Assembly: GCF_000299355.1 (NCBI RefSeq)
Contig: NC_018664.1
Coordinates: 2,588,380-2,652,379, forward strand
Direction of reading: 5' to 3'
Source: Gottschalkia acidurici 9a
Lineage (GTDB): Bacteria; Bacillota; Clostridia; Tissierellales; Gottschalkiaceae
DNA: 64,000 nt
Both the position numbers and the translations under genes were made by a program. Shown here in pieces: positions 5,906-21,907 of the stretch (position 1 is its first letter; each line of letters opens with the position of its first letter). Below the pieces are notes generated by a model that saw only the letters and a program-made list of their open reading frames with translations, was not told the origin of the DNA and made no database searches.

Positions 5906-7059
5906 TCTTCTCCCCTACCATCTAAGTATTCTTCTTTTAATGTTTCTATGGCCTTATTTATATAAGCGTTCGAGGTGCTTTTAATCATAGTTTCTACTAG
6001 TTGTTCAACATCTTTCGTTTCTTTCTTATTTTTAAAAACCTCGTATCTTTTCTTATATATATCTTCACCTTTGCCTTTCAGCTTTATTATATAAGGTGTT
6101 ATTTCTCTTATAGTTTGCCAGTCCCTAAAATCTTTAATATATTCATCTATAATATCTCTATTTTTAATCATAACTGACTTTCTTCTATCGTGGTTTTCGT
6201 CATTTATAATATTTATATTATCTATATTATAAACTTCTGCATTTGGAAGACTATATACATCTTCGGAAACATCTCTTGGAACTGCAAGGTCAAATATCAA
6301 TAACTCTTTATCTGGTAGGTTCTTACTTTCTATAACCACGTGTGGCGCTGATGTACAACTTATTATACAGTCTACATCATTATAGTATAGTTCTCGCTCT
6401 TTAAACTTTATTACTTTCACCCTTGTATCATCTATGTTTAAATCTTCCTCATCTCTAACTACTATATAAAGTTTTTCAAAATCTATAGATGTTATATATT
6501 TAGCAACAAGACTTCCTACCCCACCATATCCTAATATCATAAATTTTTTTATTCCTCTTTTTTTAGCCTCATTTACTACTATGGAAGAAGAAGATACTGG
6601 TATTCTATAAAGCTCTGTTTTGAGTCTAAATTCTTTTCCACAAGCTATGGCTGTTTCAAATAATCTTATAAATTCACTTTTTATGGACTTATTTTCCAAG
6701 CCAACTTCATAAGCCATTTTAACTTGCCCTAGTATTTGTTCTTCTCCAAATATTATTGAATCAAAACCACATACTACATCCATTAAATGTTCTATAGCTT
6801 TATCTTCTTTTAAGTAAAAAGTATATTCTAATAGATCCTTATCCCAATTTAATTCATCAAATATCTTTTCTATAATACTATCATCATAGTCTTTAGATTT
6901 AAAATAAATTTCCGTTCTGTTGCAAGTACTTAGTATGACTACCTCGTCACAATGTTTTTTCAGTTTCTCCAAAGACTTCTCTATTCTCTTTGTAATTATA
7001 GATAGTTTTTCTCTAATTCTTAACTCTACATTATGACGAACTCCTAGTGCTTGTATCAA
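5872..7059 (-). CDS. hemA: Glutamyl-tRNA reductase
   Basis: Reduces glutamyl-tRNA to glutamate-1-semialdehyde with NADPH; first step of the C5 pathway. The catalytic cysteine lies in STCNRTEIY (about residue 46). FGEEQILGQVKMAY, the nucleotide-binding MILGYGGVGSLVAKYI and a C-terminal helical dimerisation part are visible. At 395 residues it is slightly short of the usual 410-450. It overlaps cbiJ by 4 bases upstream and the precorrin-2 dehydrogenase downstream. Confidence 0.95.
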   Translation of the reverse strand: MIQALGVRHNVELRIREKLSIITKRIEKSLEKLKKHCDEVVILSTCNRTEIYFKSKDYDDSIIEKIFDELNWDKDLLEYTFYLKEDKAIEHLMDVVCGFDSIIFGEEQILGQVKMAYEVGLENKSIKSEFIRLFETAIACGKEFRLKTELYRIPVSSSSIVVNEAKKRGIKKFMILGYGGVGSLVAKYITSIDFEKLYIVVRDEEDLNIDDTRVKVIKFKERELYYNDVDCIISCTSAPHVVIESKNLPDKELLIFDLAVPRDVSEDVYSLPNAEVYNIDNINIINDENHDRRKSVMIKNRDIIDEYIKDFRDWQTIREITPYIIKLKGKGEDIYKKRYEVFKNKKETKDVEQLVETMIKSTSNAYINKAIETLKEEYLDGRGEECLRIIKKIFY

Positions 7060-7784
7060 ATTATCATCTCCACTAACTTATCTATATCCTTTATTCCTTC
7101 TTCATCTTTCCTACCTATTATGATAGATTTAATCCCTAGCTTTTCACAGGCAGATAATTTATCAAAAGTTCCACCTATATTTCCACTATCTTTCATAACA
7201 ACATAGTCTGGATTGTACTGTTTAAACATAGCCAAATTAAATTCTTCCGAAAAAGGACCTAAAATAGCTATTATATTTTTCATATCTATATTATTATTTA
7301 CACATTCTTCTATACTAAATTTAGAAGGAAGTACTCTATATATAAATCTATTATTCCCTTTTATACGTTCAAAGTCCGTTATGTTTTTTATACCTGTAGT
7401 AAATAGAACTGTTCCTTTTCTTTCTTTCAGATAGTTTAAACATGCTTCTATATTCTCCAGATATATAGTCTTTGATTCCTTTACTCTCTGAGCTTTTTCT
7501 CTTACATATCTTATATATTCTATATTACACTCTTTAGAAGCTCTTTTTGCGTTTAGAGTAACTTCTTCAGCATACGGATGAGACATGTCTACTATCTTTT
7601 TTATATTATGTCTTGATATAAATTCTATCATATTTTCATAGTTTAATCTTGAAACTATTGTATTTTTATCCTTTAGAACCTCTTTTCCCGCATAAGTTGC
7701 AACAGTGACTACATAATCTACTTTTTTAGATATCTTTTCTACCAAATAGAAGGTTTCTTTAGTTCCTCCTATTATCCAAATCAA
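7056..7784 (-). CDS. cbiJ: Precorrin-6A / cobalt-precorrin-6A reductase
   Basis: A 242-residue CobK/CbiJ-family protein that reduces the corrin macrocycle using NAD(P)H. Recognisable parts are MIWIIGGTKETFYLV at the N-terminus, VDMSHPYAEEVTLNA, IRYVREKAQRV and YVVMKDSGNIGGTFDKL near the C-terminus. It overlaps cbiH and hemA by 4 bases on each side, the tight spacing seen throughout this operon. Assigned to the anaerobic branch because cbiG, cbiD and a cobaltochelatase are present. Confidence 0.93.
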   Translation of the reverse strand: MIWIIGGTKETFYLVEKISKKVDYVVTVATYAGKEVLKDKNTIVSRLNYENMIEFISRHNIKKIVDMSHPYAEEVTLNAKRASKECNIEYIRYVREKAQRVKESKTIYLENIEACLNYLKERKGTVLFTTGIKNITDFERIKGNNRFIYRVLPSKFSIEECVNNNIDMKNIIAILGPFSEEFNLAMFKQYNPDYVVMKDSGNIGGTFDKLSACEKLGIKSIIIGRKDEEGIKDIDKLVEMII

Positions 7785-8500
7785 ATTTTATACCCCCTAG
7801 GAGTAACTATTTTTCCATCTTTAATATAGCTTTCTCTATTTCCAACTATAACTATGGTCATCATATCTATAAATTCATAGTTTATATTTCCTAGTGTAGT
7901 TACTATCTTATCTTCTCCTTCCCTTCCAGAATGCTTTACTATTCCTACAGGTGTATCTTTACTTTTATATTTCAACATTATTTCTACGGCTTTTTCTATA
8001 TGCTCTTTTCTTCCCTTACTTCTAGGATTATATATAGATATTACGAAGTCAGCTTTTGAAGCTAAATCTATCCTATTCTCAATAACTTCCCATGGAGTTA
8101 AAAGATCTGATAGACTTATAGTACAAAAGTCATGCATAATAGGTGCTCCTAGTACCGATGCTCCACTAAATGCTGACGTAACGCCGGGTACTACTTCAAC
8201 TTCTATACCTTCTGATAACTCAAGTATTGGGCCTGCCATGCCATAAAGTCCTGCATCTCCTGTGCTAATTATACAGGTATTAAATCCTTCTTTTACTTTA
8301 TCTATTGCCATATTGCATCTTTCTATTTCGCCCTTCATTCCTGTCTTAATAACTTCTTTGCCTATTACTAAATCACTTATAAGATCTATGTAGAAGGTAT
8401 AACCTACTACTACATCACACTTTTTTATAGTCTCTAGTGACCTCAATGTCATGTCGTCCCTACCACCAGGTCCTATTCCTATAACATATAGTTTAGCCAA
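7781..8500 (-). CDS. cbiH: Cobalt-precorrin-3B C17-methyltransferase
   Basis: A 239-residue tetrapyrrole methylase that adds the C17 methyl and drives ring contraction. Seen are LYVIGIGPGGRDDMTLRS, the SAM-binding ISTGDAGLYGMAGPILE, VVPGVTSAFSGASVLGAP and SLSDLLTPWEVIENR, which is typical of CbiH/CobJ. I place the start at TTG 8498-8500 (MAKLYVIG) because GAGGAG lies 8 bases upstream; a longer frame begins at 8524. The start overlaps the end of cbiG. Confidence 0.94.
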   Translation of the reverse strand: MAKLYVIGIGPGGRDDMTLRSLETIKKCDVVVGYTFYIDLISDLVIGKEVIKTGMKGEIERCNMAIDKVKEGFNTCIISTGDAGLYGMAGPILELSEGIEVEVVPGVTSAFSGASVLGAPIMHDFCTISLSDLLTPWEVIENRIDLASKADFVISIYNPRSKGRKEHIEKAVEIMLKYKSKDTPVGIVKHSGREGEDKIVTTLGNINYEFIDMMTIVIVGNRESYIKDGKIVTPRGYKI

Positions 8501-11005: not shown

Positions 11006-11559
11006 CCTTTAATCCCCCTAACTATAAATATTGGATTTTGTGCTTTTAACAATCCTGTTTTTTCATCAACTATAGATGCCTGAATTAGTCTAGTTTCTAT
11101 ATTTCGATATCCGTTTTGTTTTAATAAACTTTGAAACTTTGTTAAGTTATTTAATGTTATAAAGTTTGCCACCAATATTCCATCTGGAGCAATTTTATCT
11201 GTAATTGTTCTAACTATTTCTTCTAACCTTTTACTACTTCCACCTATAAAACATTTATTAAAATAATGTATATTATCTATTCCTAAAGGAGCTATATTCT
11301 TAATTATTTCTATATCTTCTATATTGAACCTTTCAGAATTCTTTCTAATTAGATCTATACCTTCATCCTCTTTTTCTATAACATAGGTCTTTGCCCCCTG
11401 TAGTGATGCTTCTATAGATATAGATCCAGTTCCACCACCTATATCTAAAAACACGTCTCCTTTTTCTATTTCTAACATTCCTATAGTAATTATTCTTGCT
11501 TCAAATTTAGTCATAGGAATGTTTCCTCTAATAAATTCCTCATCTTTAATCCATCTCAA
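11002..11559 (-). CDS. cbiT: Cobalt-precorrin-6B C15-methyltransferase (decarboxylating)
   Basis: A Rossmann-type methyltransferase that methylates C15 and decarboxylates the C12 acetate. Seen are IRGNIPMTKFEARIITIGML and the SAM motif VFLDIGGGTGSISIEAS, followed by CFIGGSSKRLEEIV. I prefer the TTG at 11557-11559 because GGTGGTG lies 6 bases before it; a TTG at 11574 is also possible. It is the first gene behind the cobalamin riboswitch. Its usual partner cbiE is 11 kb away, on the far side of the accessory region. Confidence 0.93.
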   Translation of the reverse strand: MRWIKDEEFIRGNIPMTKFEARIITIGMLEIEKGDVFLDIGGGTGSISIEASLQGAKTYVIEKEDEGIDLIRKNSERFNIEDIEIIKNIAPLGIDNIHYFNKCFIGGSSKRLEEIVRTITDKIAPDGILVANFITLNNLTKFQSLLKQNGYRNIETRLIQASIVDEKTGLLKAQNPIFIVRGIKG

Positions 11560-11581
11560 TATTTTCACCACCAATACAAAA

Positions 11582-11620
11582 AATAAACTCCTGCCTTAAA
11601 TGGCAAGAGTTTTTTATCTA
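11582..11620 (-). terminator. Riboswitch-associated terminator before cbiT
   Basis: On the minus strand the leader forms a stem between ACTCTTGCC and GGCAGGAGT, followed by a T-rich stretch (ATTTTTT), right before the cbiT ribosome site. The matching hairpin is found after the second B12 riboswitch, which supports a transcription-terminating expression platform. Confidence 0.8.
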
Positions 11621-11699
11621 ACAATACTAGTAAAAGGTAATTGATTTTTACATAAACTACCCCTAATATATAATCTTACGCCATTTACTTCCCTCCGAA

Positions 11700-11868
11700 G
11701 TGTAGCTTACATTTTAGGCAGGTTTCCTGACTTACGTTTCATCCTCCTCTTTCCTTCCCAGATATTTGTAATAACCAGTGGTATAAAGACTTGTCCTCGT
11801 ATACAGTAGCGGGGGCTGTAGTGGATTTTAACCACTTTCCCTATTATCCTTTTGCAAGGCACCTAAAA
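11700..11868 (-). ncRNA. Cobalamin (B12) riboswitch, copy 1
   Basis: Read on the minus strand it has the cobalamin-aptamer landmarks in order: AGGTGCC, GGGAA, the CAGCCCCCGCTACTGT block, CCACTGG, GGGAAGG, and GTCAGGAAACCTGCC. It should fold on adenosylcobalamin and shut off the cbiT-to-hemL run through the terminator just downstream. Long blocks are identical to the copy at 27351-27510, suggesting duplication or gene conversion. Confidence 0.95.
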
Positions 11869-12164
11869 CAATATATTTAACTTTACTTTCATTATATTAT
11901 CAGTCCATAATTATTTCAATGATAAAGTCTCGATTACTATTTTTATATTCATTAAAGGTCTTAAAATCAGTATATACTCTAATATTTACCTAGAGTATAT
12001 TTATCAAATAAATCTGTCTTTTAAAGATCTCTATCATGAACAAAGTAAATAGTTTCCTCAACTTTAACAGACAATAATGTTTCTATATTAGCTAAAATAT
12101 AGGGTTTAATTTCTATTTTAAAATCTGTTGGATTTATTTAAATGCAAAAAAAAAATTCTTTTAA

Positions 12165-12240
12165 AAAATAGAAGAAGCTCATCTAAGATATCTTTCCTTC
12201 TATGATTTATTAATTAGAAATTTAAGCCTTATACTATTTT
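12165..12240 (-). repeat. Cassette 3' element, copy A
   Basis: A roughly 75-base element lying right after the stop codon of the 69-residue membrane protein gene. On the plus strand it reads TAGAAGAAGCTCATCTAAG, then TTCTATGATTTATTAATTAG. It aligns with copies C, D and E. On the minus strand it can form a stem (ATAGAAG...CTTCTAT) followed by six T, so this copy could also terminate transcription. Confidence 0.6.
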
Positions 12241-12244
12241 GAAA

Positions 12245-12454
12245 TTATTCTCTATAACTCAATGATAATTTATTAAAAATAAAATCAATTATTAGATATA
12301 CTATAATCCACAAACCTAAATCGATTAGTATTTTTATATTAAATATTCCTTCAGAAAAGTTATAGTTAAATCCTGTTAAGCTACGAATAATGCGAACAAT
12401 TATAAATGCTATTATAAATTTAGAAATGCCCATATATTTTTTTCTTTCATTCAA
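12245..12454 (-). CDS. Small membrane protein
   Basis: A 69-residue protein, function unknown. It has a charged start (MNERKKYMG), a hydrophobic segment near residues 11-25 and another near 46-60, so two membrane passes are likely. GGAGGATTGA precedes the ATG, supporting translation. It is one of a run of small same-strand genes between the cobalamin riboswitch and the recombinases, and is followed by copy A of the common 3' element. Confidence 0.65.
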   Translation of the reverse strand: MNERKKYMGISKFIIAFIIVRIIRSLTGFNYNFSEGIFNIKILIDLGLWIIVYLIIDFIFNKLSLSYRE

Positions 12455-12504
12455 TCCTCCATTATTAATCTATTAATATTAAAATTTTATGAATCAGTTA
12501 TATA

Positions 12505-12575
12505 ATAATCTACATCAAGCTCAAACCCTCTTCTTTTATAGTTTATTGATTCGAAATTTATATGGCGTAAAGTAA
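12505..12575 (-). repeat. Cassette 3' element, copy B (diverged)
   Basis: Directly follows the stop codon of the 74-residue membrane protein gene. Only the second half is clearly alike: TTTATTGATTCGAAATTTA and then GCGTAAAG on the plus strand, compared with TATCAATTGGAAATTCTG and GCGTAAAA in copy D. Its placement is the same as in the other copies. Confidence 0.45.
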
Positions 12576-12581
12576 ATAATA

Positions 12582-12806
12582 TTATGATCTTTTATGTATT
12601 ACTTTTATAGCATCAATGATTAGTATAATACTAAAGTAAATTATAAATATAATTCCTATAATCAATATTAGGTTAAATAAAATCCTATTAAAATAACCTA
12701 CAATGCCTCTTAATCTATAAACAGGTCTAATATAACTTGAGGTACTCACCAATACAAGAAAAAGGCTACCAAGTATACCTAATAAAAGGCTTAATCTTCT
12801 TTCCAA
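12582..12806 (-). CDS. Small membrane protein
   Basis: A 74-residue protein with two strong hydrophobic segments (about residues 5-22 and 40-65) separated by RPVYRLRGIVGYF. The start is TTG with AAAGGAGGAG upstream, a strong ribosome site. No family recognised. It is part of the same-strand array and is followed by 3' element copy B. Confidence 0.65.
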   Translation of the reverse strand: MERRLSLLLGILGSLFLVLVSTSSYIRPVYRLRGIVGYFNRILFNLILIIGIIFIIYFSIILIIDAIKVIHKRS

Positions 12807-12924
12807 GACAACTCCTCCTTTTATAAAAGTGACAATCTTATTTAGTACACAACATAGTAAGATTGCGAATCAACTCATAAACTTATCTTCATAGTATGTT
12901 ATATTTATTATTTATTTTTCTTTA

Positions 12925-13090
12925 TTCTCTTAAACTTAATAATACAGTACCTAATAAGTGCCTCTATACATCCTCCTATAATGTATCCTGATGTATAGTT
13001 ATCAATCAATTTAATACTAAAATATTTATCTATAACACAACCATATGCAATTTCCTAAATAATAGAATCTCTTGTTTCTTTCCTTTAGGT
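12925..13090 (-). pseudogene. Broken small gene remnant
   Basis: On the minus strand one frame reads KEPKGKKQEILLFRK and stops, while another continues with GCVIDKYFSIKLIDNYTSG and GGCIEALIRYCIIKFKRI before a TAA. Each piece looks protein-like but no single frame has both a start and an end. I read this as a small gene broken by a frameshift; the family is not recognised. Confidence 0.3.
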
Positions 13091-13126
13091 TCTTTTATAC
13101 ATTGTGAAACTCCCTTTTACATGTAT

Positions 13127-13303
13127 TTACGACTTATTTGGAAATAACTTATTTCCTATCAGTCCGCCGATTAAAGCTGATAGCCCAGTAATACTAACTG
13201 ATGTAATAAGATTACTGTTAGGTAGTATATATTCAAATAAGAAAACTACTATTCCTACAAATGCGCCTGTAAATAAAGCCATACCCATGCTTCCCTTTTT
13301 CAT
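13127..13303 (-). CDS. Very small membrane protein (58 residues)
   Basis: An ATG with a full AGGAGG ribosome site 8 bases upstream opens a 58-codon frame. The protein begins MKKGSMGMALFTGAFVG and has two hydrophobic stretches (about residues 7-25 and 33-50) with small residues, the second containing SALIGGLIGNKLFP. The glycine-zipper-like pattern suggests helix packing in the membrane. Function unknown. Confidence 0.65.
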   Translation of the reverse strand: MKKGSMGMALFTGAFVGIVVFLFEYILPNSNLITSVSITGLSALIGGLIGNKLFPNKS

Positions 13304-13378
13304 AGCAATAACCTCCTTTAATCTTAAGTTTGTAAATTCTTACGTTTATGAATCAACTTATAAAGCATTATACCTTGA

Positions 13379-13750
13379 TTATTTTATTACTAATCGCCAT
13401 AGAAATATTAAAATAATAACAATCATTATGATCAATGAGGCAGTATGAAAGATTATCTTTTTGTCTTTTATCCTATTGTACGATAAATAATTCAATATGC
13501 TTATACAAGTAGCTAGACAAAAAGAATATACTGAAAAAATACATAACACTATAAATGTAGATTTAATATTTTTAATACACACAATTATAAATATATTCAC
13601 TCCTAAGTTAACAATGAATTGTTTAAGAAATTTACCTTTTCTCCGAAATACATATGGATTATATCTGTCTTTATTAAATAAGTAGATTTCTCTGATAATT
13701 AGACCTACAAGTATAGTGATAAAGACTATTATATAAAGATAATCAGGCAT
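13379..13750 (-). CDS. Membrane protein, unknown
   Basis: A 123-residue protein with about four hydrophobic segments (roughly residues 4-20, 46-60, 62-85 and 100-120) and a basic loop, RYNPYVFRRKGKFLKQF, between the first two. No family recognised. It is on the same strand as the neighbouring small genes of the accessory region. Confidence 0.6.
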   Translation of the reverse strand: MPDYLYIIVFITILVGLIIREIYLFNKDRYNPYVFRRKGKFLKQFIVNLGVNIFIIVCIKNIKSTFIVLCIFSVYSFCLATCISILNYLSYNRIKDKKIIFHTASLIIMIVIILIFLWRLVIK

Positions 13751-14049
13751 ATCACTTCCCCCTCTTTCTATGAAGTATAGTGTTAACTATTATAAGTCTC
13801 CTTCTAAAATAACCTACTGTAAACCAAATCCTCCACGCTCATTAATGTTACATAACTAAAATATTCAAGAACTTAATTTCATGACATCTATCAAAATTAG
13901 TATCTTCGTGAGAATACACTTCAAAATACCTAAGTATTTAGCATGATCTAGTTAAATCATTACATAATATACTTTCTAACCTTTAGACATAAGAAAACAG
14001 GGTAAACCGTCTTATAACTATACAGTCTAGCCTTCAATATAATTTACAC

Positions 14050-14262
14050 TTAAGAATATATTACTATAGCATTATATCCTTTTCCTTCTAGTTCATTAAC
14101 TAAACTATCTACATTAGTTTTTACACTAAATGCTCCAACCTGTACTTTATATAGTTCGTCTTATTGAACTACTATAGGACATATCACTTAGTTTTAAGTT
14201 CATTTACAAGGCTAGACGTTTTAATATCTTTCCTATCTTTAAGATAACTGACAACTTTATGC
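14050..14262 (-). pseudogene. Decayed SPOR-domain fragment
   Basis: The minus strand encodes LYKVQVGAFSVKTNVDSL followed by VNELEGKGYNAIVIYS and a TAA. This is a clear SPOR (peptidoglycan-binding) repeat, as found at the C-terminus of cell-wall amidases. Just upstream a second partial repeat, DIKTSSLVNELKTK, is cut off by stops. No start and no catalytic domain remain, so this is the decayed 3' end of a cell-wall hydrolase or sporulation gene. Confidence 0.6.
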
Positions 14263-14276
14263 TTTTTACTAAGTAA

Positions 14277-14771
14277 TTATAGGATTTTCTTCATCATATC
14301 ACCACATAAAGTTTTCCCTGCCCACTTTAATTCTATATCTTTGATTTTTATAAATCCAATTTTAGTCCAGAAATCAAGTACATAGTTATCGTAGTTAGTA
14401 ACCACATCTATCCTAATTGAGTCACTTCGTAATGATTTAGCGTATATTTCTAATGCATGAAAAATCTCCTTTCCAAAACCTTTATTTTTATAATCATTAT
14501 GTATAATTAATAATGATAAGTATGTTTCCTTATCAATTTTAAAATCCATAATACCAATCAATTTTTGTGAACTTATCTCAACTATTTTACAACAGTGAAA
14601 TCCTATTTTTTTCATAGATTCAATTTCTTCATATATCCACTCATTTCTTACACTATCATAATTCGTATGACTTATTAAAAATTTCTTGCTAGAGTTATAA
14701 ACCTCAGTAATCCTGTATAAATCTTTATTATCTACTAAGTCTACATATAATTTTTTTGACCTAAAAAGCAT
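14277..14771 (-). CDS. GNAT-family N-acetyltransferase
   Basis: A 164-residue acetyltransferase. The acetyl-CoA-binding region is seen as YLSLLIIHNDYKNKGFGKEI (about residues 84-103), where the usual R/Q-x-x-G-x-G/A becomes KNKGFG. A C-terminal FWTKIGFIKIKDIE matches the GNAT end. The substrate is unknown. It is the first gene downstream of the decayed recombinase and its hairpin pair, in the position that the lipoprotein gene at 16959-17327 holds in the other unit. Confidence 0.85.
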   Translation of the reverse strand: MLFRSKKLYVDLVDNKDLYRITEVYNSSKKFLISHTNYDSVRNEWIYEEIESMKKIGFHCCKIVEISSQKLIGIMDFKIDKETYLSLLIIHNDYKNKGFGKEIFHALEIYAKSLRSDSIRIDVVTNYDNYVLDFWTKIGFIKIKDIELKWAGKTLCGDMMKKIL

Positions 14772-14791
14772 TTAAACCTCTCCCTAAGTTT

Positions 14792-14864
14792 CACATAACT
14801 AATTGTATTCCCGATGTTTACTGAACGTTTCTATCAGTGAATGTTAGGAATATTCAGTTATGTG
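14792..14864 (-). repeat. Long imperfect hairpin I (copy 2), attC-like
   Basis: A 73-base imperfect inverted repeat. The outer arms CACATAACT and AGTTATGTG are perfect; inner arms pair TATTCC with GGAATA and ACTGA with TCAGT. The same 73-base structure with compensatory changes occurs at 17351-17423. It lies between the recombinase remnant and the next gene. The AAC/GTT triplets in the outer stem recall attC simple sites, but the full attC consensus is not met. Confidence 0.7.
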
Positions 14865-14872
14865 TTGTTTAC

Positions 14873-14939
14873 ATGGATAATCAATATCTTCTTAATTTAA
14901 ACATACTACTTTGACTTAAGAATGTAATTAATTGTCCAT
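14873..14939 (-). repeat. Long imperfect hairpin II (copy 2)
   Basis: A second inverted repeat directly after hairpin I. Arms begin ATGGATAAT and end with GTCCAT; the inner stem pairs TTCTTAA with TTAAGAA. The counterpart at 17432-17497 has TCCTTAG with CTAAGGA at the same place, so pairing is kept while bases change. Confidence 0.65.
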
Positions 14940-14987
14940 ATATGCCATATTCGACATAATAACCCTAGAGCCTCCTACAATCTATCT

Positions 14988-15718
14988 AATGGACTTTGAA
15001 TGTTACTTATATACTTCTTACTCACATGAGTATAAATCATTGTAGTTTCTGTACTACTATGGCCTAATAACTTATATATATCTAATGTCTGTTCCTGATT
15101 CTAATAAGTGCGTAGCAAATGAATGCCTTAGACTATGAATAACTAACATTCTTTTTAATTGCTACTTTATAATAATCCTTCTCAAACACTCTTTGTGCTG
15201 ATCTTTCTGTTAGATGATGTTTCTTATCTCCTCCTTTAAACAACCATTCTTTTGGTGTATATCTTCTGTAGTAATCTCTTAATACAATCAATGCTTTTTC
15301 TGATAGTAAAGTATATCTATCCTTTTTACCTTTAGCATCTCTAACATGGATTAGCATTCTAATTGAATCAATATCTTCTATCTTTAATCTAACTAGTTCG
15401 CTTACTCTTAATCCTGCTGAATATACTAAACTTAATAAGACTTTATGTTTATGATTCTCTACTACATTTAATATTCTTGTTACTTCTTCTTGACTTAATA
15501 TATCAGGTAACTTCTTTTCTTTCTTTACTCTAAACATATTAATATCAATTCTTCTAGGAGATATAATATATATTCATTTACATCTTCACTAGAAACAAAC
15601 TTTAAATCACTTTCATAATAATCTGTGAACCTTATAATAGGATTCAATTGTATTAGAACTATATCTTTTTAGTTTTAATACTTTTTCTAACTCTAAATAA
15701 ACTGATTGATGATTCATT
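14988..15718 (-). pseudogene. Decayed tyrosine recombinase (copy 2)
   Basis: A broken copy of the gene at 17533-18369. Near the start it keeps ATG-AAT-CAT-CAA and a GGAGG ribosome site, but two internal deletions remove much of the N-terminal DNA-binding domain. The largest open part (15133-15537, 134 residues) keeps the catalytic arginine (SAGLRVSELVRL) and lysine (RDAKGKKDRYT). A small insertion near the HxxR box and a deletion before the GH motif shift the frame. About 280 bases of the centre are nearly identical to copy 1 while the flanks differ more. Confidence 0.9.
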
Positions 15719-15744
15719 TAATTAAACCTCCTTTGATTTTAAGC

Positions 15745-15880
15745 ATAAAAATAAACCCTAACCACAATTGGCTAGAGCTTTAATTTCTTTATCATATTTA
15801 GTTTTTATATAGGGGTGGGGCATTAAACTATTATTCTAAATCATATGGTTCATATAGATACCGAAGAAAAATCTATATAT
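15745..15880 (-). promoter_or_regulatory. Recombinase leader with terminator (copy 2)
   Basis: Upstream of the recombinase start there is a hairpin (CTCTAGCC paired with GGTTAGGG) followed by a T-rich run, then the GGAGG site. Further up is a conserved block with CCCCACCCCTATAT and GGTATCTATATGAACCATA. The same arrangement precedes copy 1. A terminator immediately before a ribosome site suggests attenuation, or insulation of the gene from upstream transcripts. Confidence 0.45.
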
Positions 15881-16060
15881 AATTTCCCTACAGATAACCA
15901 TCTAGTAAAACTACTGTTTTTACACATTTAATAACCTATTTCTCCTTTTCAGTAGTAAATCATTTATTGTTAGTAGTGTATACAGTGATTCATATTTACT
16001 ATTAATCATATATATTATCTTTAGATAGCTTAATTCTATATGATATTTAATAAAGATATA

Positions 16061-16097
16061 TTAGGAGGGGAGAATACAAAGTATTCTCCCCTCCTAA
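16061..16097. repeat. Perfect GC-rich palindrome (copy 2)
   Basis: TTAGGAGGGGAGAATAC, a three-base loop, then its exact reverse complement: a 17-bp perfect stem, notably G/C-rich for this DNA. No T-run follows on either strand, so an ordinary terminator is unlikely. The same place in the other unit has a palindrome of different sequence (18715-18755). Confidence 0.85.
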
Positions 16098-16107
16098 AGA
16101 AACCAGT

Positions 16108-16209
16108 TTAAAATATACTTATACATCTTATGACTCTAGTTGTATAATTTCCAGTTGTATTTACATACTTTAATGTGCTAGACGTTCTCACAGCAATCTG
16201 AGAGCATGT
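16108..16209 (-). pseudogene. Gene tail of about 33 codons
   Basis: A minus-strand frame without a start ends in TSSTLKYVNTTGNYTTRVIR and a TAA, beginning with SQIAVR. The counterpart next to copy E keeps SQIAV and then hits stops. It appears to be the 3' end of a lost gene carried along with the recombinase unit. Family unknown. Confidence 0.35.
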
Positions 16210-16241
16210 TTAAGATAGAATACATTCATATCGTACCTACT

Positions 16242-16315
16242 AATAGAAAGAACTCGTCTAAGATATTTTTTCTTCTATGGGTTGTTAACTGGAAATTATG
16301 TATGACGTAAGATAT
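16242..16315 (-). repeat. Cassette 3' element, copy C
   Basis: On the plus strand: TAGAAAGAACTCGTCTAAG, TTCTTCTATGGGTTGTTAAC, TGGAAATTATGTATGACG. It lies just after the stop codon of the 103-residue membrane protein gene. It shares the order of blocks with copies A, D and E. Confidence 0.7.
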
Positions 16316-16338
16316 TAATAACATGATATAAATTTTAT

Positions 16339-16650
16339 TTAAGGTATAATACCAAATCCACTAATAATTAATATAGAAAATATAAATAAAACCATATTTC
16401 CTCCAAATCCTACTTTAGATAAGATTTTAATCACTTTATTTTCTTGTACACCTAAAGGTTTAATGTATCCTATTCCTAATATCCAGTAAATAAATAATAG
16501 AAACAAATTCAAACTACTTGAAGCCATTATTGGTAAAAGCTCAGAATCACTTATCCTTAGTTCTAGCGTCCAAGCAAATATACTAAAGCTAAATAATAAG
16601 CATGATAAAACAACTAAAAGAGTTCTAACAAGTTCTATAAATCTTTTAAT
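16339..16650 (-). CDS. Small membrane protein with possible ATT start
   Basis: A 103-residue protein with three or four hydrophobic segments. The open frame extends 41 codons above the first ATG (16527), and the extension encodes a good N-terminal membrane/signal segment (RTLLVVLSCLLFSFSIFAW). A strong AGGAGGTG site lies directly before two ATT codons (16653 and 16650), with no ATG, GTG or TTG there. Either an ATT codon starts translation or the original start was mutated. The downstream part holds FLLFIYWILGIGYIKPLGV. Followed by 3' element copy C. Confidence 0.6.
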   Translation of the reverse strand: MKRFIELVRTLLVVLSCLLFSFSIFAWTLELRISDSELLPIMASSSLNLFLLFIYWILGIGYIKPLGVQENKVIKILSKVGFGGNMVLFIFSILIISGFGIIP

Positions 16651-16748
16651 AATAACACCTCCTAGTATTCAATTTTCTATTTAAAATAGTTTCATAGTAT
16701 CTAGCTGTTAAGAAACTAATTATAAAACAATTTACTTTAAACTCAATC

Positions 16749-16842
16749 TCAATTAGCTCTTAAAATTACCATTGATACACAATTATCATCTAACGCTATT
16801 GCTGGCTGGTCTTCTGTTTCTAAAACATAATAGAAGAAACTC
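16749..16842 (-). pseudogene. Gene tail of about 30 codons
   Basis: A start-less minus-strand frame ends VLETEDQPAIALDDNCVSM then VILRAN and a TGA. It begins inside 3' element copy D, so the junction looks like a fusion of the element to the end of another gene. No family recognised. Confidence 0.35.
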
Positions 16843-16902
16843 GTCTAAAATATATTTTTCCTCTATGGCTTATCAATTGGAAATTCTGTGTTGCGTAAAA
16901 CA
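16829..16902 (-). repeat. Cassette 3' element, copy D
   Basis: On the plus strand: TAGAAGAAACTCGTCTAAAA, CCTCTATGGCTTATCAATTG, GAAATTCTGTGTTGCGTAAA. It lies 56 bases past the stop of the lipoprotein gene at 16959-17327. On the minus strand TAGAGGAAA can pair with TTTCTTCTA. Confidence 0.7.
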
Positions 16903-16958
16903 ATTAAGTTGTAAGCTTATTTTCTAAGTTTTACTTATATAAATTGTAATTTAAAAAA

Positions 16959-17327
16959 CTATTTATTATTCCACTCATAATCAGATTTTAAATTACCAGG
17001 TATTTCCATTACATTTATCTCTTTCATCAGCATAGAGCTATCCATTTCTCCAGATTTATAAAATGAAATTATCCAATCATCTGTAGAATAGTCTTTATAT
17101 TCATAAACTTGGTCATTCTTGTCTCCATTAACTATACCAATTTGTTCTCCTCTTTCACTATTGTCAACAGCACAAAAAGGAATATAAGTCCTATTTTCAC
17201 TAACAATCGCAACATAATCATTATTTTCTTGAGTTGTCATATTTTCTAATTTCTTATTACTCTGATTACATGAACTTAACATAATAGTTATTAAGCACAG
17301 ACTTATAAGATATAGTAACTTTTTCAT
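16959..17327 (-). CDS. Putative lipoprotein
   Basis: A 122-residue protein with a clear lipoprotein signal: MKKLLYLISLCLITIMLSSC, the cysteine at residue 20 being the expected lipidation site. The mature part is short and polar (NRTYIPFCAVDNSERGEQIG, DDWIISFYKSGEMDSSMLM). Function unknown. It is the first gene downstream of the intact recombinase and its hairpin pair and is followed by element copy D, the arrangement expected of a gene cassette. Confidence 0.75.
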   Translation of the reverse strand: MKKLLYLISLCLITIMLSSCNQSNKKLENMTTQENNDYVAIVSENRTYIPFCAVDNSERGEQIGIVNGDKNDQVYEYKDYSTDDWIISFYKSGEMDSSMLMKEINVMEIPGNLKSDYEWNNK

Positions 17328-17350
17328 TTAATACCTCACCTTATTAATTT

Positions 17351-17423
17351 CACATAACTACTCGTATTACCGATGTTGACTGTACATTTCTAACAGTCAA
17401 TGTTGGTAATATTCAGTTATGTG
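17351..17423 (-). repeat. Long imperfect hairpin I (copy 1), attC-like
   Basis: 73-base inverted repeat: outer arms CACATAACT and AGTTATGTG, inner TATTACC with GGTAATA and TTGACTGT with ACAGTCAA, with a few unpaired bases and a short loop. Same length and outer stem as 14792-14864, and the inner pairs differ by compensating changes. It sits between the recombinase stop and the lipoprotein gene start. Confidence 0.75.
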
Positions 17424-17431
17424 TTGTTTAC

Positions 17432-17497
17432 ATGGATAATAAATTATCCTTAGTTTAAACATCATCATTTAAGCTAAGGACATGATTAATTATCCAT
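17432..17497 (-). repeat. Long imperfect hairpin II (copy 1)
   Basis: 66-base inverted repeat running ATGGATAAT ... ATTATCCAT, with an inner TCCTTAG paired with CTAAGGA. It directly follows hairpin I, giving a two-hairpin site between recombinase and cassette gene. Confidence 0.7.
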
Positions 17498-17532
17498 TGG
17501 TACCATATTCGACATACCTATCCAAAATCCTT

Positions 17533-18369
17533 CTACAACCTATCTAAAGGACTTTGAATATTACTAATATATTTCTTACTAACATGAGTATAAGTCATAG
17601 TGGTTTCTGTACTGCTATGACCTAATAACTTTTGAATGTATCTGATATCTGTTCCTGATTCTAATAAATGAGTGGCGAAAGAATGTCTTAGACTATGAAT
17701 GCTAACATTCTTTTTAATTCCTACTTTATCACAAGCTTTCTCAAATACTCTTTGAGCTGACCTTTCTGTCAGGTGTTGATGTTTATCTAATCCTTCAAAT
17801 AACCATTCTTTTGGTGTATATCTTCTGTAGTAGTCCCTCAATACTATCAATGCTTTTTCTGATAGTAATGTATATCTATCCTTTTTACCTTTAGCATCTC
17901 TAACATGGATTAGCATTCTAATTGAATCAATATCTTCTATCTTTAATCTAACTAGTTCGCTTACTCTTAATCCTGCTGAATATACTAAACTTAATAAGAC
18001 TTTATGTTTATGATTCTCTACTACATTTAATATTCTTGTTACTTCTTCTTGGCTTAATATATCGGGGAACTTCTTTTCTTTCTTTACCCTAAACATATTA
18101 ATACTAATATCACTTCTACTTAGTACATTATTCACCATAAACTTTATTGCACTTATGGATGTATTAACATAGGATGCTGAACGTTTCTTTTCTTCTAGGA
18201 GATATATTATATATTCATTTACTTCTTCACTTGTAACAAGCTTTAATTCCATTTCATAATATTCTATGAATCTCCTAATATGATTTACATATGATTCTAT
18301 TGTATTTGGACTATATCCTTTTAGCTTTAATACTTTTTCTAATTCTACATATACTTCTTGATGATTCAT
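17533..18369 (-). CDS. Tyrosine recombinase / integrase (intact copy 1)
   Basis: A 278-residue site-specific recombinase. Residues 1 to about 90 form the SAM-like core-binding domain (KLKGYSPNTIESYVNHIRRF). The catalytic domain has all six expected residues: R135 (SAGLRVSEL), K160 (RDAKGKKDRY), H225 and R228 (IHSLRHSFATHLL), H251 (LLGHSSTETT) and Y260 (MTYTHVSKK). The C-terminus IQSPLDRL resembles the SPLD ending of integron integrases and of recombinases accompanying IS91-type elements, but the extra helix insertion of true IntI is not seen. It reads into the hairpin pair and lipoprotein gene. A terminator lies just before its AAAGGAGG site. Confidence 0.95.
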   Translation of the reverse strand: MNHQEVYVELEKVLKLKGYSPNTIESYVNHIRRFIEYYEMELKLVTSEEVNEYIIYLLEEKKRSASYVNTSISAIKFMVNNVLSRSDISINMFRVKKEKKFPDILSQEEVTRILNVVENHKHKVLLSLVYSAGLRVSELVRLKIEDIDSIRMLIHVRDAKGKKDRYTLLSEKALIVLRDYYRRYTPKEWLFEGLDKHQHLTERSAQRVFEKACDKVGIKKNVSIHSLRHSFATHLLESGTDIRYIQKLLGHSSTETTMTYTHVSKKYISNIQSPLDRL

Positions 18370-18397
18370 TTAATTTATCCTCCTTTTAATTTTAAGC

Positions 18398-18520
18398 ATA
18401 AAAAAATACACTAACCTTAATTGGCTAGTGCATTAATTTCTTATTCATATTTACTTTTAATATATGGGTGGGGCTTGAAACGTTTTTTCTTTATTCTATG
18501 ATTCATATAGGTACCGAAGG
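18398..18520 (-). promoter_or_regulatory. Recombinase leader with terminator (copy 1)
   Basis: On the minus strand a stem of CACTAGCC with GGTTAGTG is followed by TATTTTTTT, ending about 30 bases before the recombinase ATG. Upstream are CCCCACCCATATAT and GGTACCTATATGAATCATAG, also present in copy 2. The terminator next to the ribosome site suggests attenuation; the signal, if any, is unknown. Confidence 0.45.
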
Positions 18521-18538
18521 AATTTATCTATAACTTTA

Positions 18539-18751
18539 CTACAGATAACCATCAGCTAAAATATTTGTTTCTACACATTCAATAGTTAGTTTACCCCCTA
18601 TAGTAACAGTAGGCTTATCATAAGGAGTATATACTATACTTTTATTTAGATATGAATCATATGTATTACCTTTAGATTCATTAATACCATATGATATTTC
18701 ATATTGATTTAATAAGGTGTGGGGGGAAATTACTTTGTAATTTCCCCCCAC
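18539..18751 (-). pseudogene. Gene tail ending before the recombinase
   Basis: A 70-codon frame whose only start lies inside the GC palindrome, so the first residues are doubtful. The believable part reads LLNQYEISYGINESKGNTYD, then KPTVTIGGKLTIECVETN and a TAG. A decayed copy occupies the same position in the second unit (about 15890-16060), matching in its last codons (DGYL). I read it as the 3' end of a lost gene carried in both units. Confidence 0.4.
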
Positions 18752-18755
18752 ACCT
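18715..18755. repeat. Perfect GC-rich palindrome (copy 1)
   Basis: AGGTGTGGGGGGAAATTAC, loop TTT, then its exact reverse complement: a 19-bp perfect stem containing six consecutive G:C pairs. No terminator T-run on either side. It holds the same position as the palindrome at 16061-16097, but nearly every base pair in the stem is different. Confidence 0.9.
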
Positions 18756-18885
18756 ATATCTTAGAGTTATTCTATTTATCTTATGATTCTGCTTATATAA
18801 TTTCTAGTTACTTTTCTATACAATTAAACTGACAGCAATCTGAGAGATTATTAATAGGATTTAATACTCCGTATCAAATCCTATT

Positions 18886-18960
18886 AATTTGGAAGAAACT
18901 CGTCTAAAATTTTTCCTTATATATATCGTATTAATTGGAAACTCTGTATTACGTAAAATA
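18886..18960 (-). repeat. Cassette 3' element, copy E
   Basis: On the plus strand: GGAAGAAACTCGTCTAAAAT, CGTATTAATTGGAAACTCTG and TATTACGTAAAA. It lies 56 bases past the stop of the lipoprotein gene at 19017-19457. On its left is an inverted repeat (ATTAATAGGATTT with AAATCCTATTAAT, about 18849-18887) that may be a terminator. Confidence 0.7.
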
Positions 18961-19016
18961 TAAATATTGTACTATACTCACAGTCCTAATCTAACTTATA
19001 ATCGGAGATTATATTT

Positions 19017-19457
19017 TTATTTTTCCATTCCATAACCATTTGTTCCAAATGTAGCATACCCATTTAAGTTATAACCATTTTGAGACAGTACTCTATATTC
19101 AAAATTTTGATTATAGTATTTTTTATGTTGTACAGTGAAATCTCCTACTAATCCATCAGATTGATATGGCTCAATATTTAGATTTCTAACACGTTCGCCG
19201 TTCATATATAATCCTATAGTAACAGAATATTGTGAATTATTTTCATACCACATTTTATAATATTTTTGACTTGTATTAGGATAAACAGTTCTCTCAAAGG
19301 TATTAGTATCAGAAACTTTTGTTTTTGCTAAAGGATAGCTTATATGACTGTCTTTGTTAATTTCATCATATACCATATTTTCTTCTTTTATATTATTACA
19401 CGCTGATATTGAGGTCATCATTATAAATAAAATAACCGCTAAAAAAATATTCTTCAT
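19017..19457 (-). CDS. Putative lipoprotein
   Basis: A 146-residue protein with signal MKNIFLAVILFIMMTSISAC, cysteine 20 being the likely lipid site. The mature domain is rich in Tyr and Asn (NTSQKYYKMWYENNSQYSVT, YRVLSQNGYNLNGYATFG), suggesting a small beta-sheet extracellular domain. No family recognised. It is followed by 3' element copy E, like the other lipoprotein gene of this region. Confidence 0.75.
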   Translation of the reverse strand: MKNIFLAVILFIMMTSISACNNIKEENMVYDEINKDSHISYPLAKTKVSDTNTFERTVYPNTSQKYYKMWYENNSQYSVTIGLYMNGERVRNLNIEPYQSDGLVGDFTVQHKKYYNQNFEYRVLSQNGYNLNGYATFGTNGYGMEK

Positions 19458-19520
19458 AAACGCACTTCCTTTGTTCTTGTTATACTACTACTATGTATTA
19501 ATTTTAATCTTGAATAACCG

Positions 19521-19667
19521 TCAAGAGTTCTTTTTGATATATATCTTTAATGCCTTTATAATTAATATCATTGTATATATACCAAGCCCCATTAAAATTA
19601 GATATAAAATCAAAGGTATTAAAAAACCTATAGCTTCTGATAGTGATGGCGTAATATTTACTGTCAT
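19521..19667 (-). CDS. Very small membrane protein (48 residues)
   Basis: An ATG with GGAGG 7 bases upstream opens a 48-codon frame. It has a polar N-terminus (MTVNITPSLSEAIGF), one long hydrophobic segment of about 25 residues (LIPLILYLILMGLGIYTMIL) and a basic end (KALKIYIKKNS). A single-pass membrane peptide is likely. Function unknown; it lies just upstream of the lipoprotein gene. Confidence 0.65.
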   Translation of the reverse strand: MTVNITPSLSEAIGFLIPLILYLILMGLGIYTMILIIKALKIYIKKNS

Positions 19668-19687
19668 TATTAATCCTCCTCAATCCA

Positions 19688-19780
19688 CATCATTTCACAT
19701 AACTAATGTATTTAGGACATTCATGTCAGCATATCCACTAAAATTCCTGATACTCCAGATGTTAGTATCAGAAATATATA
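19688..19780 (-). repeat. Partial hairpin-site remnant
   Basis: The plus strand starts TTTCACATAACTAATGTATT, matching the left arm of hairpin I at 14792 and 17351, but the right arm is absent. A small separate stem, CTGATACT with AGTATCAG, follows. It may be a half-site left by a deletion or rearrangement. Confidence 0.35.
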
Positions 19781-19972
19781 CTATAGATACATCCTAATAT
19801 TGATCTTTAATTTCTTACTTATACTAAAACCTAATTGTGTTCTAGTAAATCCATCATCTCATGTTCTATAATTATTTAAAATTCAACTAAATATTATACA
19901 TATATCAATGTGTCACTTATAAATAATTTTATATCAGATATGTATATTCATTCCCTCTTACTATGACCAACA

Positions 19973-20317
19973 CTATTTTTCTTTTCTTAACTCAGCCATT
20001 TGTCTTCTATAATTTCTTTGTACTTCCGTTAATCCATCATTATGCACATCTTTACCATTGCTTGTACAAGGTGCTTCTTTACAATTTTCTAATTCACTAA
20101 AAAATTCTTCTTTACTAAGTGGTACATAGTTTCCACATATATTACATTCTTTCACGTACATATTTTGATAAGGAATTACAGGTATAAAAAACAGTGTAAA
20201 CCAAGTTCTATAGCGATTATATGACCAACTTCCTAAATTAGCACAATGATTACAATAGTCTTGTCCTGATTCTCCATATTGCTTAGTTGTTCTTTTACCC
20301 CATCCAAAAATGATCAT
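19973..20317 (-). CDS. Zinc-ribbon protein
   Basis: A 114-residue protein. It starts MIIFGWGKRTTKQYGESG, has a CNHCANLGSW pair, a hydrophobic stretch (RTWFTLFFIPVIPY) and a second pair CNICGNYVPLS, followed by a charged tail. This matches the small zinc-ribbon family with the WTLFFIPVIP segment found widely in Bacillota; function unknown. Related direct repeats of about 60 bases lie on each side (about 19853-19915 and 20339-20400). Confidence 0.75.
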   Translation of the reverse strand: MIIFGWGKRTTKQYGESGQDYCNHCANLGSWSYNRYRTWFTLFFIPVIPYQNMYVKECNICGNYVPLSKEEFFSELENCKEAPCTSNGKDVHNDGLTEVQRNYRRQMAELRKEK

Positions 20318-20452
20318 ATTATTCCTCCTTCTATTTCAATAAATTTATCATCTCATATTTTTTATAATCATTCAACATAATTTAGGCTATTATATCAAAA
20401 TAAAACTATCCACCCAAGATTTCTTTCATTGAATGAATAGTTTATTTATTTC

Positions 20453-21907
20453 TTATTTAATTGGTATTTTAAACACATAATCTTCTTTAAAGTCTCTATT
20501 GTTTAAATTACTAGTTACAAAGTAATATTTTTCATTAGATTTAAGTTTTTCTACCTCAATGGTAAATTCTTTATTGTTATATCCATTATTTATTGGATTT
20601 ATTTTCACTTCAAGTTTTTCCCCAGCTTCATTTTCTATATAGAGTTGATGTCCTTGAAAATAAGGTAGTTTTCCTTCTGCCTTATATCTTATAATAGTTT
20701 TATCTTCTGTTTCTTCCATTCCTATTATTGTTAACTTTCCAAATCTACCTTGCTTTAATTCTATAGGATATGATCCATTTATAAGCTTTTTCACATCTTT
20801 TGTTATATATTCTTTTTTGTTTTTTCTAACAGACTTTTTCCCATCCTCGTGTAAACCAAATTCCTCTCTTATTCTGAACTGCACTGGTACAACAGTTAAA
20901 TATTTTGGTACTTTGTCCACAGCATCATATCTATATGTGGATTCAAAGCTTTCGTGAGATCCTCCCCCACTCATATTTTCTCTTCTTCCTATTTCATTTC
21001 CGTTATCGTCGAATAAAAGCCAATAGTCATATTCAAAAAATCCGAAATGACTATTTAAGTCATTCATGTTTTCATATTTTTTTCCGTCTAATTTTATATT
21101 AGTACTTAGTGGACTAAAGGAAACTTTACTTATTCTAACATCTGTTCCCTCAAAATTTTTAACTATATCAACATCAAATGTTTTTTGTTCTTTTAATATT
21201 TCTTCTTTTGATAATTTAAATGAGAATTTCCACTTTCCTTTTATATCAAATATTTCTTTAATATTTATATCCATATCAAACTTATCTGGTAGTTTTTCAA
21301 GTCCCATCTGATATTCAACAAAAGCTATCATAGTATGTTCATCTATCTGCTCGCTTGTAGACGAGGCTCCGCTAAAACCACTAAAACTTCCATTTATCTT
21401 AATTGATTCATATAGATTTGAAATAAAATTTTCACCTAATTCTTCAATTTTTTTATCACTTTTAATAGTGTACGTTATTATTACTTCCGATTCATCATAT
21501 ACTACTTCATTTAGTGTAATACTTATTCCTTTGTCATATTGAGTTTGACCTATAACTTCAGCGTATGTCTCATAATCACCCTTATATCCGTAATTCTCTA
21601 TTAATCTCTGCACTATAGAGTTTAACACAGGTATTTCTTTGGCAAAGGCAGGATTTTTAACACTCATTATTCCTATCCAAGCTATACAAATTATAACTCC
21701 TCCTGCTATACTTAAAGCATACTTAGCTTTTTTAGATAATCTTTTAACTCCTAAATCTTTTCTCAAATTCTTTTTAAGTTTTCTTATTCTTATTTCATCT
21801 ATATTTAAATCTATATCTTCAAATTCTTCTCCATCAATATTGACTTCATTAAGAAGTTTATATATATCTTTTTCATCTAAAATATTTTTTAATTCCTCCC
21901 TATTCAT
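20453..21907 (-). CDS. DUF4179 anti-sigma-type membrane protein
   Basis: A 484-residue protein. The N-terminal 60 residues are charged and cytoplasmic (MNREELKNILDEKDIYKLL), followed by one membrane segment (about 63-82, YALSIAGGVIICIAWIGIMS). A DUF4179-like extracellular domain follows, with YGYKGDYETYAEVIGQTQYDKG and ISITLNEVVYDESEVIITYT, then beta-rich domains to the end. It overlaps the ECF sigma gene by 4 bases, the usual pairing of an anti-sigma factor with its sigma. The inducing signal is unknown. Confidence 0.85.
   Translation of the reverse strand: MNREELKNILDEKDIYKLLNEVNIDGEEFEDIDLNIDEIRIRKLKKNLRKDLGVKRLSKKAKYALSIAGGVIICIAWIGIMSVKNPAFAKEIPVLNSIVQRLIENYGYKGDYETYAEVIGQTQYDKGISITLNEVVYDESEVIITYTIKSDKKIEELGENFISNLYESIKINGSFSGFSGASSTSEQIDEHTMIAFVEYQMGLEKLPDKFDMDINIKEIFDIKGKWKFSFKLSKEEILKEQKTFDVDIVKNFEGTDVRISKVSFSPLSTNIKLDGKKYENMNDLNSHFGFFEYDYWLLFDDNGNEIGRRENMSGGGSHESFESTYRYDAVDKVPKYLTVVPVQFRIREEFGLHEDGKKSVRKNKKEYITKDVKKLINGSYPIELKQGRFGKLTIIGMEETEDKTIIRYKAEGKLPYFQGHQLYIENEAGEKLEVKINPINNGYNNKEFTIEVEKLKSNEKYYFVTSNLNNRDFKEDYVFKIPIK

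What the first reader, a model, noticed from the sequence alone, without database searches (positions are those of the whole stretch)
12165..20317. Integron-like gene-cassette region in a Clostridia genome
Seen: about eight small genes (lipoproteins, small membrane proteins, an acetyltransferase, a zinc ribbon) all on one strand; an intact tyrosine recombinase and a decayed second copy on the same strand; a structured two-hairpin site between each recombinase and the next gene; and a common element after the stop of five small genes. Known: integron cassettes are single genes plus a 3' recombination site whose folded shape is recognised, captured by a tyrosine recombinase. Inference: this may be a distinct cassette-capture system using a non-IntI recombinase that keeps an IntI-like SPLD C-terminus.
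Basis: partly seen in the sequence, partly recalled or inferred. Interest (0 to 1): 0.85.

Follow-up and report, generated by a model that had tools for sequence, protein, structure and literature searches.

The report
Clostridial integron with unusual integrase
This stretch looks like the worn-down remains of a gene-collecting machine of the integron kind, built around a recombinase that lacks a part thought necessary for integrons; related bacteria carry large, well-preserved versions of it.

Summary
The window holds an intact tyrosine recombinase (17533-18369, -), a decayed copy, and after each a folded site (17349-17426, 14790-14867). A covariance model built from relatives' sites, without any sequence of this genome, hits in the window only these two places (weak genome-wide, so position matters). 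In relatives (mostly 51-58% identical) the recombinase is followed, on its strand, by an attI-like site and arrays of single genes each ending in an attC-type site, up to at least 94 sites per genome. In one single-contig genome an exact cassette sits in two arrays, identical over 993 nt and parting at the GTTA core. None of 28 such genomes has an integrase over the IntI cut-off (positive control), and the aligned recombinases lack the ~41-residue IntI insertion. Relatives head a rAID-like immunity array and stand beside tet(X3) (leads only). Not supported: the 3' elements as recombination sites; capture by the window's own locus. Ten searches of an open-access library found no description; subscription papers were not searchable.

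The parts
17533..18369 (-). Intact XerA-like tyrosine recombinase, 278 aa, without the IntI-specific insertion, SPLD-type C-terminus
17349..17426 (-). attC-type recombination site (hairpin 1) just after the recombinase
   Evidence: R1 hit E 3.2e-4 over 151 kb; fold z -5.0/-6.9
17434..17512 (-). Second hairpin between recombinase stop and hairpin 1, perhaps the accessory part of attI
   Evidence: fold z -3.8/-4.9; role inferred
14978..15717 (-). Decayed second recombinase copy
   Evidence: pieces at G000:C2:2603357-2604096
14790..14867 (-). attC-type site after the decayed copy
   Evidence: R1 hit E 0.0018; fold z -3.6
18405..18434 (-). Terminator-like hairpin just before the intact recombinase
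15753..15780 (-). Homologous terminator-like hairpin before the decayed copy
18892..18966 (-). Genome-specific 75-nt element after a lipoprotein gene and at the border of the recombinase block; role unknown
16820..16925 (-). Copy of the element
16241..16310 (-). Copy of the element, at the border of the decayed block
12167..12222 (-). Partial copy of the element
18715..18755 (-). Perfect palindrome in the leader of the recombinase block
   Evidence: I23
16061..16097 (-). Corresponding palindrome of the decayed block, other sequence but still paired
19690..19790 (-). Possible attI-like site (core AGTTATGTGAAA) before the next gene; weak
   Evidence: repeat of the core; fold z only -1.3
16959..17327 (-). 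Cargo gene: lipoprotein, 122 aa, right after the attC-type site
   Evidence: lipobox by eye
14277..14771 (-). Cargo gene: GNAT acetyltransferase, right after the second attC-type site
19017..19457 (-). Small lipoprotein gene before the recombinase block
   Evidence: lipobox by eye

Best explanation
The region is a partly decayed locus of an integron-type system whose integrase is a XerA-like tyrosine recombinase without the IntI-specific insertion. Mechanism, inferred from anatomy: the recombinase acts on an attI-like site just downstream of its own stop codon and on folded attC-type sites of single-gene cassettes, exchanges strands next to the G of a GTTA core, and so places a cassette beside the integrase, on the same strand. 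Shown by computation, in relatives: attI-like and attC-type sites, arrays, association with the recombinase, no IntI over cut-off, and one exact whole-cassette copy in two arrays. Inferred: circular intermediates, folding of single strands in the cell, and that this recombinase does the work. In the window an attC-type site stands right after each recombinase copy while no attC was found after the cargo genes, so the locus is best read as a derived or failing remnant.
For: Inverse core in own downstream DNA at <=3 mismatches in 11 of 20 loci against 3 of 578 cross-locus pairs and 1 of 20 in direct orientation. Site scan: 51 sense sites downstream, 7 antisense, 12.3 in shuffles; 6 and 5 in more DNA upstream. 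R1 in 24 of 28 recombinase genomes at E<=1e-3, 9 of the 24 without a training site. Same 391 genomes: sites in 16 of 19 with and 13 of 372 without the recombinase at the thresholds used; without training genomes 6 of 9 against 13 of 372. One cassette identical over 993 nt in two arrays, the base before G differing. One ORF in each of 7 intervals of L097. IntI cut-off passed in 0 of 28 and 0 of 13 genomes, in 2 of 2 positive controls. Window: R1 model without this genome's sequence hits only the two hairpins.
Against: The plain site scan does not single out the window: 9 hits on both strands, and 2-10 in one-strand shuffles; two pattern searches gave no more hits than chance. At the scale of the whole genome the window sites do not reach E 1e-3, only the two L035 sites do. 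No attC was found after the cargo genes. Four of 28 genomes with the recombinase have no R1 hit. L093 has lost the attI and shows no sites. Only one case of unit identity was found, and duplication by other means is not excluded. The tree did not resolve the relation to IntI. No activity was tested.
Confidence: 0.8

Rival explanations
1. The arrays are ordinary CALINs once or now served by a classical IntI, and the XerA-like recombinase stands beside them by chance.
For: 13 of 372 genomes without the recombinase at E<=1e-65 have R1 sites; CALINs are reported in Firmicutes (PMC9024848, passages).
Against: IntI over cut-off in 0 of 28 and 0 of 13 such genomes, though the search finds IntI where it exists. 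Six or seven of the 13 hold this recombinase or an end of it, by my reading of model ends. The core after the recombinase matches the cassette's own site.
Confidence: 0.08
2. In the window only: a small mobile block made of element, leader, recombinase and hairpins that copies itself, unrelated to cassette capture.
For: The block is duplicated with its far border at the element; a further remnant lies at 1.823-1.825 Mb; no attC after the cargo genes.
Against: Its recombinase and site belong to the type that runs arrays in relatives, and the same genome has a decayed recombinase with two attC-type sites downstream (L035). No target duplication or empty site was looked for.
Confidence: 0.25
3. 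The hairpins are transcription terminators or RNA control elements between co-directed genes.
For: Terminator-like hairpins occur before both recombinase copies.
Against: In 12000-20500 the terminator scan lists three sites, none of them the two attC-type hairpins. No Rfam match above gathering score in 11500-20500 except the cobalamin riboswitch. In relatives the sites pair with the cassette start and an exact unit ends on the core.
Confidence: 0.04

Closest known systems
Classical integrons (IntI, attI, attC cassettes)
   Same: Tyrosine recombinase beside an attI-like site, GTTA-type core, R''-L''-L'-R' sites, single-gene cassettes on one strand; the non-gene strand folds better in 38 of 49 sites
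   Different: No IntI insertion; below the IntI cut-off; integrase on the same strand as the cassettes with attI after its 3' end; model R1 does not find the class 1 sites of L122
Archaeal-type XerA and chromosomal XerC/XerD
   Same: Domain order and length; window protein scores 222.1 against a cut-off of 220 for NCBIfam XerA_Arch
   Different: SPLD end, further copies in the genome, cassette-type sites beside it instead of a dif site (dif is recalled, not searched)
Bacteroidales rAID arrays (PMC12247911, passages)
   Same: Tyrosine recombinase upstream of short co-directed genes with intergenic motifs; the B. ovatus plasmid protein is 44.8% identical; CCATTA in 8 of 8 later intergenic stretches of L124 (by eye)
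   Different: R1 finds no site in L124; core ATTA instead of GTTA; window cargo is not recognisable immunity genes
xerD/tpnF-tet(X3) module of Acinetobacter plasmids (PMC7530245, PMC8635130, passages)
   Same: Recombinase 50.7% identical over residues 50-278 directly before the gene, hairpin with GTTATG core between (fold z -4.1)
   Different: Site after the gene is unconvincing (fold z -0.8), no R1 hit; the papers' passages ascribe movement to ISCR2

Membership tests
Integron, strict (IntI-based) | Integrase with the IntI-specific domain / over the IntI model cut-off | tested here: not met
   216.3 bits against 265, split match; 22 residues where IntI4 has 64; insertion absent; positive controls 508 and 433 bits
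Integron, strict (IntI-based) | attC sites R''-L''-L'-R' after each gene | tested here: met
   In relatives. In the window only after the recombinases, not after cargo genes
Integron, strict (IntI-based) | attI beside the integrase | tested here: met
   In relatives: GTTA 60-200 nt after the recombinase in 26 of 32 loci, own genome included. In the window the site after the recombinase is attC-like
Integron, strict (IntI-based) | Unit-wise cassette gain, loss or reordering | tested here: inconclusive
   One exact unit in two arrays of G187; not tested in the window's species
Integron, strict (IntI-based) | Recombination of attI and attC by the integrase | not testable with these tools
   Needs a bench assay
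XerA/XerC/XerD housekeeping recombinase | Sequence family of XerA | tested here: met
   NF040815 222.1 bits, cut-off 220
XerA/XerC/XerD housekeeping recombinase | Acts at dif for chromosome dimer resolution | not tested
   No dif search was made; other Xer-like genes exist in the genome
rAID system | Recombinase upstream of co-directed orphan immunity genes with shared intergenic motifs | tested here: inconclusive
   Layout alike in L124; cargo of the window and of ten cassettes tested is not recognisably immunity genes

The most novel reading that the evidence does not exclude
There is a second, IntI-independent kind of integron: XerA-like integrases without the insertion held to be necessary run chromosomal cassette arrays in Clostridia (up to about a hundred sites) and, with variant cores, the rAID immunity arrays of Bacteroidales and the tet(X3) module. 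Orphan attC clusters reported in Firmicutes may be theirs.
Probability: 0.5. Interest if true: 0.95.

Novelty: new variant of a known kind. Interest (0 to 1): 0.85.

Why it matters
[quoted passage not shown] all passages). Arrays of up to at least 94 sites served by an integrase without that domain would mean that surveys built on it miss a kind of gene-capture system, would make the role of the domain directly testable, and could explain how rAID arrays are built, which PMC12247911 (passages) calls not yet clear.

Tried and rejected
The 3' element as an attC: by eye no match to the start of the gene it follows, no fold, no R1 hit, found only in this genome's loci among those held. The weak copy at G000:C2:646729 lies among unrelated genes. 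Rfam gave only the cobalamin riboswitch above gathering score. The first site scan was looser (35 sense sites downstream, 11 antisense, 6.5 in shuffles, 7 upstream) and was changed to TAAC/GTTA cores. The 18 inverse cores were picked by eye, some with 5 or 6 mismatches; the unbiased test is. A first form of that test, with GTT[AC] cores, gave 7 of 20 against 3 of 380 before the rule was set to GTTA. The protein tree left the relation to IntI open. Scans of genome contigs and viral contigs gave two distant loci each. R1 training: 31 of 48 collected sites; left out were two that looked like chance (L082_2012, L096_1575), two of this genome (kept as a test), four long or odd ones, and all over 170 nt. 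The folding test used 49: 46 of the 48 plus three of this genome. Tree rows dropped: L078, L042 (near copies), L105 (short); L008 and L040 gave no usable row. Ten cassette proteins were sent to Pfam of 16 prepared. In one search only 7 candidates per genome were scored, with stricter filters, and at most 110, so negatives and counts are lower bounds. The L033 site was missed with default filters and found with filters off in 3 kb.
Full report
What is in the window. On the - strand between about 12.2 and 20.3 kb lie small genes, one intact tyrosine recombinase (17533-18369) and a decayed copy. The two copies belong to homologous blocks, 17348-18966 and 14789-16320, that run from a 75-nt element through a leader with a palindrome and the recombinase to a pair of hairpins. 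A terminator-like hairpin stands just before both recombinases. A cobalamin riboswitch lies at 11700-11881.

The recombinase. It scores 222.1 bits (cut-off 220) with NCBIfam XerA_Arch, 'site-specific tyrosine recombinase/integron integrase', and 216.3 (cut-off 265) with the integron integrase model TIGR02249, in two stretches. Its best solved relative by sequence is IntI4 (2a3v): residues 10-173 align to 9-173 and 196-278 to 238-320, so 22 residues stand where IntI4 has 64. In an alignment with IntI1 and a second IntI about 41 residues present in both are missing from the other six: the window protein, two clostridial relatives, TnpF, the B. ovatus protein and the Rufibacter protein. IntI1 and the second IntI score 509 and 443 with TIGR02249; TnpF, B. 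ovatus and Rufibacter proteins stay under the cut-off at 192, 187 and 199.

Relatives. 10 of 249 genomes of the order (E<=1e-55) and 19 of 391 of the class (E<=1e-65) hold a close relative, own genome included in both. I fetched 30 loci of 27 other genomes. Of 23 draft contigs with such a recombinase, 8 end within 300 nt downstream of it and 0 within 300 nt upstream, as expected if repeats begin there.

Sites. Downstream of many of the recombinases lies a palindromic stretch ending in a GTTAnnnGA-like core. With one fixed rule, 26 of 32 loci have GTTA 60-200 nt after the recombinase; of the 20 with enough DNA, 11 have the inverse core at <=3 mismatches in their own downstream DNA, against 3 of 578 cross-locus pairs and 1 of 20 in direct orientation. 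Behind the inverse core follows the attC layout (18 loci picked by eye). A pattern scan finds 51 sense sites downstream in 141.7 kb, 7 antisense, 12.3 in shuffles, and 6 sense and 5 antisense in 201.5 kb upstream. The non-gene strand folds better in 38 of 49 sites; the sites are not all independent.

Arrays. L097 has seven sites and one ORF of at least 70 aa in each of the seven intervals; over seven loci 47 of 55 ORFs lie on the recombinase strand. L096 is less tidy: a long stretch between its first and last good site holds other genes. Ten cassette proteins gave four GNAT acetyltransferases, one HAD hydrolase, one methyltransferase, one 3-dmu-9_3-mt protein, one Fic/Doc protein and two without a family. 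With model R1 24 of 28 recombinase genomes have sites at E<=1e-3; 15 of the 24 gave training sites, nine did not. G187 has 94; the 47 that were listed lie in three clusters of 9, 16 and 22, each on one strand; two of the clusters run downstream from a recombinase, the third has none among the hits.

Association. In the same 391 genomes, sites at E<=1e-6 occur in 16 of 19 with and 13 of 372 without the recombinase at its threshold, Fisher p 6e-18. Without the training genomes it is 6 of 9 against 13 of 372, p 5e-7. IntI over cut-off: 0 of 28 and 0 of 13; the same search finds IntI in 2 of 2 plasmids known to carry it, at 508 and 433 bits. Two of the 13 have no TIGR02249 match at E<=1e-20; six or seven hold this type of recombinase or its end, by my reading.

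Unit movement. G187 is one contig with two of these recombinases, 96.4% identical in DNA up to the core. The first cassette of one array is identical over 993 nt to the sixth of the other. The base before the G of GTTA differs, and after the next GTTATA the arrays part. This is what insertion of a whole cassette at G|TT predicts; it is a single case.

Back to the window. R1 holds no sequence of this genome. Over the window, six other loci of this genome and two plasmid loci (151 kb) its only hits at E<=1 are the two hairpins after the recombinases (3.2e-4, 0.0018) and two sites in L035 (3.5e-9, 4.5e-9), 2.5 and 5.3 kb downstream of another decayed recombinase. Genome-wide only the L035 pair passes 1e-3, so the window sites rest on score and position together. 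The plain scan and two patterns do not set them apart from chance. L033 has one more site (3.7e-6 in 3 kb, filters off). No attC was found after the cargo genes, and the 75-nt element is something else. Capture in the window is not shown.

Wider leads. A Rufibacter plasmid has a recombinase 46% identical, co-directed genes and folded stretches between them (one R1 hit 6e-5; z -2.6 and -3.2). Two R1 hits in a Chryseobacterium plasmid are weak (0.004, 0.25). A B. ovatus plasmid shows a rAID-like array but no R1 hit. On pHH1107 TnpF stands directly before tet(X3), with a hairpin and a GTTATG core between; the site after the gene is unconvincing. R1 does not find the class 1 sites of L122, so its silence elsewhere says little.

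Literature. Ten searches of the held open library listed no paper on integrons run by an integrase without the IntI domain, or on such arrays in Clostridia. PMC8618304 lists Firmicutes among phyla with integrons (passage), and PMC8138268 says that the insertion is not fully conserved in its integron-like subgroup (passage). From recall, not read here: the 2019 rAID paper speaks of a structure suggestive of active gene acquisition, so part of the idea may be in print for Bacteroidales.

Noticed in passing
L124 5822-10456: B. ovatus plasmid: recombinase of the same kind before at least eight co-directed genes (SMI1/KNR4, Imm26, DUF2262, PoNe immunity and others); intergenic stretches carry inverted repeats and CCATTA (8 of 8 after the first, by eye).
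   Followed up: partly
L103 (pHH1107) 6028-8125: A recombinase of the same kind stands directly before tet(X3), with a hairpin and GTTATG core between; the stretch after the gene is only a weak match.
   Followed up: partly
window 18405-18434 and 15753-15780: Homologous terminator-like hairpins just before both recombinase copies: insulation or attenuation of the integrase.
   Followed up: no
window 18715-18755 and 16061-16097: Long palindromes in the leader of both blocks, different in sequence but still paired; use unknown.
   Followed up: no
window 12167-12222, 16241-16310, 16820-16925, 18892-18966: A 75-nt unfolded repeat near stop codons, found only in this genome among the loci held; role unknown.
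   Followed up: partly
L090, L101, L102: More distant relatives (38-46% identical) followed by an ORF that looks to me like an IS91-type transposase, without an array beside them; L090 and L102 have one chance-level site each.
   Followed up: no
G187:C1 21-54 kb: A third cluster of attC-type sites on one strand without a recombinase among the hits.
   Followed up: no
L078 / L079: Nearly identical recombinase loci (99.9% over 1442 nt) in two draft genomes of different families: transfer or misassigned contig.
   Followed up: no
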